DNA from: Thermosynechococcaceae cyanobacterium Okahandja
GTDB taxonomy: Bacteria; Cyanobacteriota; Cyanobacteriia; Thermosynechococcales; Thermosynechococcaceae
DNA length: 64,000 nucleotides
NCBI GenBank assembly: GCA_041530395.1
Contig: CP136945.1
Location: 248,001 to 312,000 of the forward strand
Reading direction: 5' to 3'
Shown here: positions 32,059 through 34,279 of the stretch, in pieces
Layout of the letters: each line of letters begins with the position of its first letter
How positions within the stretch are numbered: the stretch's first letter is position 1
Notes under the pieces: generated by a model
The model's database searches: none
Told to the model about the DNA's origin: nothing
What the model saw: only the letters and a program-made list of their open reading frames with translations
Made by a program: the position numbers and the translations under genes

Positions 32059-32131
32059 GGGGCTATAGCTCAGTTGGTAGAGCACTTCAATGGCATTGAA
32101 GGGGTCAGCGGTTCGAATCCGCTTAGCTCCA
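32059..32131 (+). tRNA. tRNA-Ala (anticodon GGC)
   Basis: The 73-base sequence folds as a cloverleaf: acceptor GGGGCTA pairs with TAGCTCC, the D arm is GCTCAGTTGGTAGAGC, the anticodon stem CTTCA/TGAAG holds the loop ATGGCAT with anticodon GGC, and the T arm is GCGGTTCGAATCCGC. The 3' CCA is not encoded. It separates the defence-type locus from the IsrB element and could be an integration landmark, although no duplicated tRNA end was found. Confidence 0.97.
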
Positions 32132-32182: not shown

Positions 32183-32431
32183 ACCCCCAAAAGAGGGGGT
32201 CTCTCGCAGGTCAACGTTCAAGAACTCCCCCCTGCCAAGGCGAGGTGGAAGAGTGGGGAGCCAGCCTCACTGAAACCTTGAATAGCCCATAGAGCCGAGT
32301 CCTGCCACGCACTTCCGGTTGCTTCTCTAGACCGGATTATCTGCAAGCCTTCTGGCCTGAGGCGCTGGGACAGCCAAGACATGTTGGACTCGGTGGGCGA
32401 AGAGACTCAAACTCGAAAGAGGTTTATCACA
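32183..32431 (+). ncRNA. Probable omega RNA region of the IsrB element
   Basis: The stretch between tRNA-Ala and the isrB start has no gene of its own but is strongly structured. It has a hairpin ACCCCC/GGGGGT at 32183-32200, a hairpin TCCGGT/ACCGGA at 32314-32336, and a perfect 8-bp long-range helix CCGAGTCC (32295-32302) with GGACTCGG (32386-32393) enclosing the second hairpin. IscB and IsrB proteins use an omega RNA encoded directly upstream of the protein gene, so position and structure agree. Exact ends are unknown. Confidence 0.6.
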
Positions 32432-33499
32432 ATGCTACGCGTTCCAGTTCTATCTCCTGACGGAAAACCGTTAATGCCAACCAAGCCGAGCCGCGCCCGT
32501 CGCTGGATTCGAGATGGTTTGGCCGTAGGAAAGTGGTCAGATTTGGGCGTGTTCTACGTTCAACTAATTCGGAAACCTTCTGGGAAAAAAATCCAACCGA
32601 TTGCGGTGGGCATCGACCCTGGAAAGCTGTATTCCGGTATTGGAGTGCAATCCTCCAAGGCAACTTTATTTTTGGCTCACCTAGTGTTGCCATTCCAAAC
32701 GGTTAAAGACCGCATGGAACAACGCCGGATGATGCGACGTGGGAGGAGAATCAACCGCAAGGTTGCCTACGCCGAGCGCGCCCACAGACAGAAACGGTTT
32801 AATAACCGTAGGCAAAACAAACTACCGCCTAGTATTCGAGCCAATCGACAACTTGAATTCAGGGTTGTGAGTGAGATTTGCAAAATCTTTCCAGTGAGCA
32901 AGATTGTCTATGAGTACGTAAAGGCAGAGGGGTCAAAATCCTTTTCTCCTGTAATGGCGGGTCAACGCGTCATGCTGGGCTGGTTGGCAGCACTAGCGCC
33001 GGTTGAGACTCAAGTTTGGAACACCGCTAACCTCAGGAAGCAGTTAGGGTTAGCCAAGTCGAACGATAAGGCAGTACAAACACCTGAGAGCCATGCCGTG
33101 GATGGGCTAACTCTGGCGTGTTCTGAGTTCGTCAAATACGAACCGTTCCGCAGAGCCACTACGCACGGTCATCGGTGGAGAGGATCGGTGCAGTTAACGT
33201 CTGCGGTTTTCAAAGGGATTCGCAGACCTCCCATTTGTCGTCGGCAGTTGCATTTAATGCTTCCAGCCAAAGGTGGGGTGCGTCGTAAGTATGGGGGCAC
33301 CACTACACGGCATGGTGTCCGGAAGGGGGATTTTGTTCGGTACCCCCGCATGCGGGGGCAGGGGGCTACAGAAAAGGCAGGGCGAGCTTATATCGGCTGG
33401 GTGAGTGGGGATACTCAAAGGCAGATTTCTGTGAGCGATGCGAACTGGAAGAAACTAGGGCAATTTACTGCTTCTAAAAGTCTGTCTGATTGTCCGTAG
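32432..33499 (+). CDS. isrB: IsrB-type RNA-guided nickase (HNH-less IscB relative)
   Basis: A 355-residue protein starting at ATG 32432. The N-terminal PLMP domain is visible (SPDGKPLMPTKPSRARRWI), RuvC motif I is VGIDPGKLYSG, an Arg-rich bridge region follows (RRMMRRGRRINRK), RuvC II is around KIVYEYVKAEG, and RuvC III is TPESHAVDGLTLA. Only about 45 residues separate RuvC II and III, so the HNH domain of IscB is absent; that defines IsrB, which nicks the non-target strand under omega RNA guidance. The C-terminal KGDFVRYP...SVSDANWKKLGQFTAS is standard for the group. No TnpA is nearby, so movement would need a helper. Catalytic residues look intact. Confidence 0.85.
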   Translation: MLRVPVLSPDGKPLMPTKPSRARRWIRDGLAVGKWSDLGVFYVQLIRKPSGKKIQPIAVGIDPGKLYSGIGVQSSKATLFLAHLVLPFQTVKDRMEQRRMMRRGRRINRKVAYAERAHRQKRFNNRRQNKLPPSIRANRQLEFRVVSEICKIFPVSKIVYEYVKAEGSKSFSPVMAGQRVMLGWLAALAPVETQVWNTANLRKQLGLAKSNDKAVQTPESHAVDGLTLACSEFVKYEPFRRATTHGHRWRGSVQLTSAVFKGIRRPPICRRQLHLMLPAKGGVRRKYGGTTTRHGVRKGDFVRYPRMRGQGATEKAGRAYIGWVSGDTQRQISVSDANWKKLGQFTASKSLSDCP

Positions 33500-33556
33500 T
33501 ACTGGGCTGGTCGTTTCGGGGGTATCGCACCCCACTCAACTACCGCTCCTATCCCT

Positions 33557-33583
33557 CCCCCACCTGCTACGCGAGGATGGGGG
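33557..33583 (+). repeat. Right-end hairpin of the IsrB element
   Basis: CCCCCACC and GGATGGGGG form an imperfect stem about 57 bp after the isrB stop. Subterminal hairpins mark the ends of IS200/IS605-type elements. No T-run follows directly, so it is a poor terminator. The ribosome site of the next gene lies within 20 bp. Confidence 0.45.
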
Positions 33584-33601
33584 GTTCTCGGAGGTTTTTT
33601 G

Positions 33602-34279
33602 ATGAAAATTCTGCTGGTAGAGGATGATTCGCGTATTACGAAAGCAGTTGCAGAGGCGTTAATCGATCAGCACTATGTTGTAGAAGTAGCCGATGATGGT
33701 GAGCTTGGGTTTACATTTGCTGAGACAGGTGTGTTTGACTTAATTATTTTAGATTTAATGTTACCAAAACTAGATGGGATTAGACTCTGTAAAAAACTGC
33801 GGCAAAATGGGAACAAGACTCCAGTTCTAATGCTGACCTCACGTGATACAACTATGGACAAAGTGTTAGGTCTAGACGCTGGGGCTGATGATTACCTCAC
33901 TAAGCCGTTCGACCTCCAAGAATTTTTAGCAAGAGTCCGAGCACTTCTACGGCGTGGTAATGTTACCTTTTCACCAATTTTGGAGTGGGGGGAATTGATA
34001 TTGGACACGAATGAGTGCCGAGTGACATACCGTAATTCTCCCTTGACGTTGACCCCCAAAGAATATGCATTGCTAGAACTATTCCTGCGCAATGGAAGTC
34101 ATGTTCTTAGCCGTAGCGTAATTTTGGATCGTCTATGGACATTCGACGATATACCTAGAGAAGAAACTGTTAAAGTTCATCTAAGAAGCTTGCGTCAAAA
34201 ACTCAAAGATGCAGGTGCACCACCTAATCTGATTGAGACTGTCTATGGCTTGGGATACCGACTTAACCCCAATCTTTAA
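33602..34279 (+). CDS. OmpR/PhoB-family response regulator
   Basis: A 225-residue DNA-binding response regulator. The receiver domain has the acidic pair in LLVEDDS, the phospho-acceptor Asp51 in LIILDLMLP, and the Lys in LTKPF. The C-terminal winged helix (LTLTPKEYALLELFLRNGSH ... VHLRSLRQKL ... VYGLGYRL) spans about residues 125-225. The start is ATG 33602, preceded by GGAGG. Base composition is clearly more AT-rich than the core genes, pointing to acquisition. It overlaps the kinase gene by about 35 bp, the usual arrangement for a cognate pair. Confidence 0.9.
   Translation: MKILLVEDDSRITKAVAEALIDQHYVVEVADDGELGFTFAETGVFDLIILDLMLPKLDGIRLCKKLRQNGNKTPVLMLTSRDTTMDKVLGLDAGADDYLTKPFDLQEFLARVRALLRRGNVTFSPILEWGELILDTNECRVTYRNSPLTLTPKEYALLELFLRNGSHVLSRSVILDRLWTFDDIPREETVKVHLRSLRQKLKDAGAPPNLIETVYGLGYRLNPNL

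What the first reader, a model, noticed from the sequence alone, without database searches (positions are those of the whole stretch)
32183..33583. Apparently intact IsrB with a structured upstream RNA beside tRNA-Ala
The protein has PLMP, RuvC I-III and the C-terminal target-interaction motif but no HNH. A perfect 8-bp long-range helix (32295/32386) plus two hairpins lie in the omega-RNA position. IsrB proteins are few in characterised form, and one from a probable thermophile may be of biochemical interest. The element's left flank, next to the tRNA, would supply the guide.
Basis: partly seen in the sequence, partly recalled or inferred. Interest (0 to 1): 0.62.

Follow-up and report, generated by a model that had tools for sequence, protein, structure and literature searches.

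The report
Decayed RNA-guided nickase transposon (IsrB)
A 1.4-kb jumping element in a cyanobacterium carries a well-conserved guide-RNA gene and a relative of the Cas9-like nickase IsrB, but this copy's protein is damaged by a frameshift while two other copies in the same genome look intact, so it is a new but probably broken member of a known family.

Summary
The family call is right; "apparently intact" is not. Window 32217-33601 (1385 bp) is an IsrB element, one of four copies in this cyanobacterial chromosome. An empty site for a sister copy fixes the ends: left flank = guide, right flank = ATGA, the NTG(A) TAM known for IsrB. The window's guide is therefore 32197-32216. Against intactness: relative to 384-aa sister copies and about 80 relatives, the window protein lost three residues of the arginine bridge helix, gained nine from a 27-bp palindrome in the TAM-reading domain, changed the TAM-reading Arg to Lys, and lost the C-terminal beta7 strand by a +1 frameshift; deleting beta7 abolishes nicking in DtIsrB. 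The 99%-identical second copy shares these lesions, so the lineage moved without a sound IsrB of its own. Side result: in 32 of 60 elements the TAM's ATG is a downstream gene's start codon (23% expected), here a response regulator. New member of a known kind; interest moderate.

The parts
32217..33601 (+). whole IsrB element (1385 bp), TTCAAGAA...GGAGGTTTTTTG
   Evidence: four copies in G000 share exactly this stretch; the empty site of copy L004 in a congener fixes the right border before ATGAA
32197..32216 (+). predicted guide GGGTCTCTCGCAGGTCAACG (flanking host DNA)
   Evidence: immediately 5' of the conserved scaffold start; sequence unique to each copy; 20-nt guide length taken from DtIsrB (PMC9581776)
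32217..32431 (+). omega RNA scaffold
   Evidence: conserved in 89 aligned upstream regions from 32217 on; 53 pairs supported by covariation
32217..32222 (+). stem S1, 5' strand, pairs with 32277-32282
   Evidence: helix 1, 95.5% paired
32225..32252 (+). SL1, same core hairpin as the element's right end
32260..32264 (+). SL2 loop, adaptor pseudoknot with SL5 loop 32352-32356
   Evidence: helix 4, 77% paired, all six columns with double changes
   Evidence: helix 6, 97.4% paired, every pair with compensatory changes
32325..32328 (+). SL4 loop, nexus pseudoknot with 32401-32404
   Evidence: helix 9, 99.5% paired
32432..33499 (+). isrB ORF, 355 aa, C-terminally frameshifted
   Evidence: PF14239 E 8.9e-49; DtIsrB 8dmb E 2.5e-45; comparison with L003/L004
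33340..33366 (+). 27-bp palindromic in-frame insert, 9 residues in the TAM-interacting region
   Evidence: absent from L003, L004 and the relatives aligned; found only in this copy and L002
33476..33479 (+). AAAA run (AAA in L003 and L004): +1 frameshift that removes beta7
33554..33584 (+). right-end hairpin
33590..33594 (+). GGAGG, Shine-Dalgarno-like, 7 nt before the next ATG
   Evidence: similar in L003, L004, L081, L128 and others
33602..33606 (+). ATGAA: target site / predicted TAM, also the start codon of the next gene
   Evidence: empty-site comparison for L004; 61 of 62 placed right ends abut ATGA
33602..34279 (+). host response-regulator gene starting at the TAM (MKILLVEDD...)
   Evidence: start moved to ATG 33602
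32059..32131 (+). host tRNA-Ala, not part of the element

Best explanation
It is a member of the cyanobacterial IsrB elements (IS200/IS605-like, no transposase of its own). The omega RNA scaffold at 32217-32431 is transcribed with about 20 nt of left-flanking host DNA as guide. An IsrB-omega RNA complex would look for that sequence followed by an NTG(A) TAM, which is the unoccupied insertion site, and nick it; this would help the element persist or re-establish itself. TnpA would have to come from elsewhere in the genome. This copy's own protein is probably a poor or dead nickase (frameshift removing beta7, shortened bridge helix, insert and Arg-to-Lys change in the TAM domain), so its RNA would have to work with the IsrB of the L003 or L004 copies. 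Shown: family, RNA structure, ends, target site, lesions. Inferred: transcription, guide use, nicking, loss of function, help in trans.
For: Protein: RRXRR PF14239; DtIsrB 2.5e-45 over the full length, IscBs 4e-11 or weaker; Foldseek of the intact relative L081: 8dmb first, E 1.7e-31. RNA. Ends and TAM. Copies. Lesions; AF2 models give a bridge helix 88-101 against 88-109 and no strand matching 345-349 of L081. beta7 deletion and R323A each abolish DtIsrB activity (PMC9581776). Y1 TnpA genes elsewhere in the genome, none in the element.
Against: No transcript or activity data. The catalytic D62, E161, H221 and D224 are kept, and a +1 ribosomal or transcriptional slip at AAAA would restore the C-terminus. 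dN/dS between the two damaged copies (0.42) rests on only 3 and 4 changes, so relaxed selection is suggested, not shown. Whether any resident TnpA recognises these ends is unknown (no shared ends found).
Confidence: 0.85

Rival explanations
1. The window IsrB is still a fully active nickase: the C-terminal change is tolerated or bypassed by slippage at AAAA.
For: Catalytic residues intact; the correct C-terminal frame stays open to the element's end; two near-identical copies exist, so the lineage spread.
Against: beta7 deletion abolishes DtIsrB nicking (PMC9581776); further lesions at conserved positions; spread needs TnpA, not IsrB.
Confidence: 0.12
2. The damaged protein has been kept as a guide-directed DNA binder without nicking, repressing genes at start-codon targets, in the manner of TnpB-derived TldR.
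For: Nicking parts hit while RuvC and most of the protein remain; omega RNA almost unchanged between L001 and L002 (one difference in 215 nt); TAM coincides with start codons.
Against: The TAM-reading and bridge-helix parts are also hit, which should impair binding; no second target for this guide in the genome (nothing better than 3 mismatches apart from its own flank); the pattern looks like decay.
Confidence: 0.05
3. It is an IscB that lost its HNH domain secondarily rather than an IsrB.
For: IscB and IsrB share PLMP, RuvC and TI; NCBIfam guided_IscB matches the N-terminal half.
Against: E-value to DtIsrB is 34 orders of magnitude better than to any IscB; guided_IscB stays below its cut-off (107 against 175 bits); the RNA carries the adaptor pseudoknot reported for IsrB and degenerated in IscB; no Rfam match here, HEARO included, beyond the tRNA and chance hits.
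Confidence: 0.03

Closest known systems
CwIsrB and DsIsrB (Crocosphaera watsonii, Dolichospermum; Hirano et al. 2022, PMC9581776)
   Same: Cyanobacterial IsrBs with an NTG TAM and the same two pseudoknots (SL2-SL5; SL4 with the SL7-adjacent strand). Crocosphaera watsonii loci L090, L094 and L098 are 63-64% identical to the intact sister copy L003.
   Different: Window copy carries a frameshift and other lesions; the window clade has a shorter HNH linker (lacks the ADVDLTSGRKGA stretch of most relatives).
DtIsrB (Desulfovirgula thermocuniculi, PDB 8dmb)
   Same: Same domain order, same S1/S2/SL plan, Gln at the 4th TAM base (Q326 = window Q344).
   Different: R323 is Lys 341 here; beta7 (341-353) missing; RNA scaffold 215 nt against 262 nt; natural target ATGA, where DtIsrB prefers TTGA at 60 C.
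Arthrospira sp. PCC 9108 IsrB (L081, CP066886)
   Same: Closest relative outside the host genome found (82% to L003, 79% to the window protein), same ends, GGAG near the right end and ATGA target at a gene start.
   Different: Intact 384-aa protein.
IscB / HEARO
   Same: OMEGA family, guide at the 5' end of the RNA, TAM 3' of the target.
   Different: No HNH domain; no HEARO match.

Membership tests
IsrB | PLMP domain followed by split RuvC with D, E, H/D catalytic residues | tested here: met
   D62, E161, H221, D224 invariant over 48 proteins; PF14239
IsrB | no HNH domain between RuvC II and III | tested here: met
   aligned end to end with DtIsrB without an insertion there
IsrB | closest by sequence and fold to a proven IsrB rather than to IscB | tested here: met
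IsrB | omega RNA with S1/S2 stems and adaptor plus nexus pseudoknots | tested here: met
IsrB | guide at the 5' border and an NTG(A) TAM in the rejoined flank | tested here: met
   empty site for sister copy L004; 61 of 62 placed right ends abut ATGA. The window copy's own empty site was not found
IsrB | complete TAM-interacting domain with beta7 | tested here: not met
   frameshift at 33476-33479; met by sister copies L003 and L004. So this is a broken copy of a family member by descent, not a demonstrably functional IsrB
IsrB | RNA-guided nicking of the non-target strand | not testable with these tools
   needs biochemistry
IS200/IS605 element | subterminal hairpins of like sequence at both ends, no target duplication | tested here: met
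   LE and RE share CCCACCTGC...GCGAGGTGG cores; no duplication at the L004 empty site
IS200/IS605 element | Y1 transposase TnpA | tested here: not met
   none in the element; five full-length Y1 genes elsewhere in the genome. Non-autonomous at best
IscB (HEARO) | HNH domain | tested here: not met

The most novel reading that the evidence does not exclude
Cyanobacterial IsrB elements use start codons as landing sites: the TAM/target NTG(A) is the start codon of a host gene, the guide is that gene's leader, and the element end replaces the leader (in one subgroup with a GGAG ribosome-binding site 6-10 nt before the ATG), so insertion leaves the protein whole and puts the gene under the element's end.
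Probability: 0.35. Interest if true: 0.6.

Novelty: new member of a known kind. Interest (0 to 1): 0.38.

Why it matters
Four related copies in one genome, two damaged and two intact, plus a 53-bp end-only relic, allow a direct test of whether omega RNAs of broken elements work with IsrB from other copies. The natural borders give a TAM and guide without a library screen. The link between NTG TAMs and start codons, if confirmed with annotated starts, would explain where these elements sit and what their nickase sees.

Tried and rejected
Rfam search at E up to 10 found no omega RNA family. Energy folding of the single sequence was uninformative. A target for the guide elsewhere in the genome: none convincing. 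An autonomous partner sharing the ends with a Y1 transposase: not found. Origin of the 27-bp palindrome: no other copy of that exact form in the genome. Empty site for the window copy itself in congeners: only the tRNA-Ala and fragments matched. Literature on start-codon insertion of IsrB elements: nothing found in the held library; from memory, not verified, Weinberg et al. 2009 noted ATGA/GTGA sites for HEARO elements. First calls with the frame off by one failed.

Full report
What is there. The window lies in a 2.82-Mb cyanobacterial chromosome. A 355-aa ORF starts at ATG 32432. It matches Pfam RRXRR (8.9e-49) and, over its whole length, DtIsrB in PDB 8dmb (2.5e-45), far better than any IscB (best 3.9e-11). 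There is no HNH domain. The predicted fold of its intact 79%-identical relative L081 finds 8dmb first (E 1.7e-31).

Copies and ends. The genome has four copies: L001 (window), L002 (99%), L003 (94%) and L004 (87%). In 89 aligned upstream regions conservation begins at 32217 and everything to the left is unique. Joining the flanks of each copy and searching ten congeners found the empty site of L004 in several of them. The closest, G003, reads ...GATTTTGAGATC|ATGAAACCC against L004's ...GATTTTAAGCCC|element|ATGAAACCC. The right flank therefore starts with ATGA, with no target duplication. By analogy the window guide is 32197-32216 and its TAM is 33602-33605. IsrB TAMs measured by Hirano et al. 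are NTGA or TTGA for DtIsrB and NTG for the two cyanobacterial enzymes (PMC9581776).

The RNA. RNAalifold on 50 homologues gives 43 pairs, 38 of them with changes on both sides. I added two pseudoknots by hand, in the positions reported for DtIsrB and its cyanobacterial relatives (SL2 loop with SL5 loop; SL4 loop with the strand after S2). Over 53 pairs 93.5% of cells pair, against 67.5% in shuffles and 30-50% when slid by one to three columns; 671 cells have double changes against 204. A caveat: the pseudoknots were drawn from knowledge of DtIsrB and from inspecting this alignment. Energy folding alone would not have shown any of this (z -0.04).

Not intact. Against L003 and L004 (both 384 aa) and relatives, the window protein lacks three residues (RRG) of the arginine bridge helix and one residue between RuvC II and III, carries nine extra residues from a 27-bp palindrome at 33340-33366, has Lys for the nearly invariant Arg at 341 (DtIsrB R323), and ends early by a +1 shift at 33476-33479. 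Of 104 columns conserved in at least 90% of 47 relatives it departs at 8, five of them gaps (one in the bridge helix, one before RuvC III, three in beta7). Its nearest relatives L081 and L082 depart at 1 and 5; some distant relatives depart at more. Only two of the 80 other loci needed two frames to cover the protein. In DtIsrB, deleting beta7 (341-353) or mutating R323 to Ala abolishes cleavage. AlphaFold models agree: the L081 model has the bridge helix at 88-109 and a strand at 345-349; the window model has a helix at 88-101 and no such strand. L002 shares all these lesions, so the damaged lineage has moved at least once, unless both copies were damaged alike by gene conversion.

Mechanism. 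Best reading: an IsrB element whose RNA is sound and whose protein is probably not. IsrB from L003 or L004 could use its RNA in trans, and one of the Y1 transposases elsewhere could move it; both are inferences. The left-end hairpin, which is SL1 of the RNA, and the right-end hairpin share one core sequence, as expected for TnpA recognition; Hirano et al. found SL1 dispensable for nicking and suggested a role in mobility. A 53-bp relic (L165:1491-1543) joins the left arm to the right arm and nothing else.

Start codons. In 62 elements whose right end could be placed, 61 abut ATGA. In 32 of 60 this ATG opens a frame of 60 or more codons with an upstream stop within 40 codons, against 217 of 952 ATGA sites outside genes or at starts in the same flanks (odds ratio 3.9, p 1.3e-6). 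Fifteen right ends were placed by eye and gene starts come from ORFs, not annotation; without those fifteen, 29 of 47 have long ORFs (from the lists). Annotated plasmids give one exact case (a helix-turn-helix gene, L183) and one start 7 nt away (L182). One subgroup, including the window copy, has GGAG or GGAGG 6-10 nt before the ATG, but other subgroups do not, so supply of a ribosome-binding site cannot be the whole reason, and in the window the GGAGG can pair within the right-end hairpin.

Verdict. The start-codon bias is the part most worth following up.

Noticed in passing
window 33590-33610; L004, L081, L082, L094, L099, L107, L111, L113, L128, L130, L165 right ends: Right ends of cyanobacterial IsrB elements abut ATGA, which is the start codon of a downstream host gene about twice as often as expected among tolerated ATGA sites.
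   Followed up: partly
L165:1491-1543 (G000:C1 2167031-2167083): A 53-bp relic made only of the element's two ends, again directly before a start codon (TPR gene).
   Followed up: partly
window 33340-33366: 27-bp palindromic in-frame insert GTACCCCCGCATGCGGGGGCAGGGGGC of unknown origin, shared only with copy L002.
   Followed up: partly
L168 / L180 near position 1508: A different short hairpin ending in TCGGAGGTTTTG|ATGA before a small gene, resembling an end of another IS200/IS605-type element at a start codon.
   Followed up: no
L072, L073, L074, L075 (G000:C1 830517, 660399, 1113401, 32114): Four 95-97% identical copies of an IS200/IS605 element with a Y1 TnpA gene and an adjacent TnpB-like ORF, suggesting recent activity.
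   Followed up: no
L013, L151, L153, L184, L185, L186: Other IsrB subgroups seem to end at TTGA or GTGA instead of ATGA, in line with an NTGA target.
   Followed up: no
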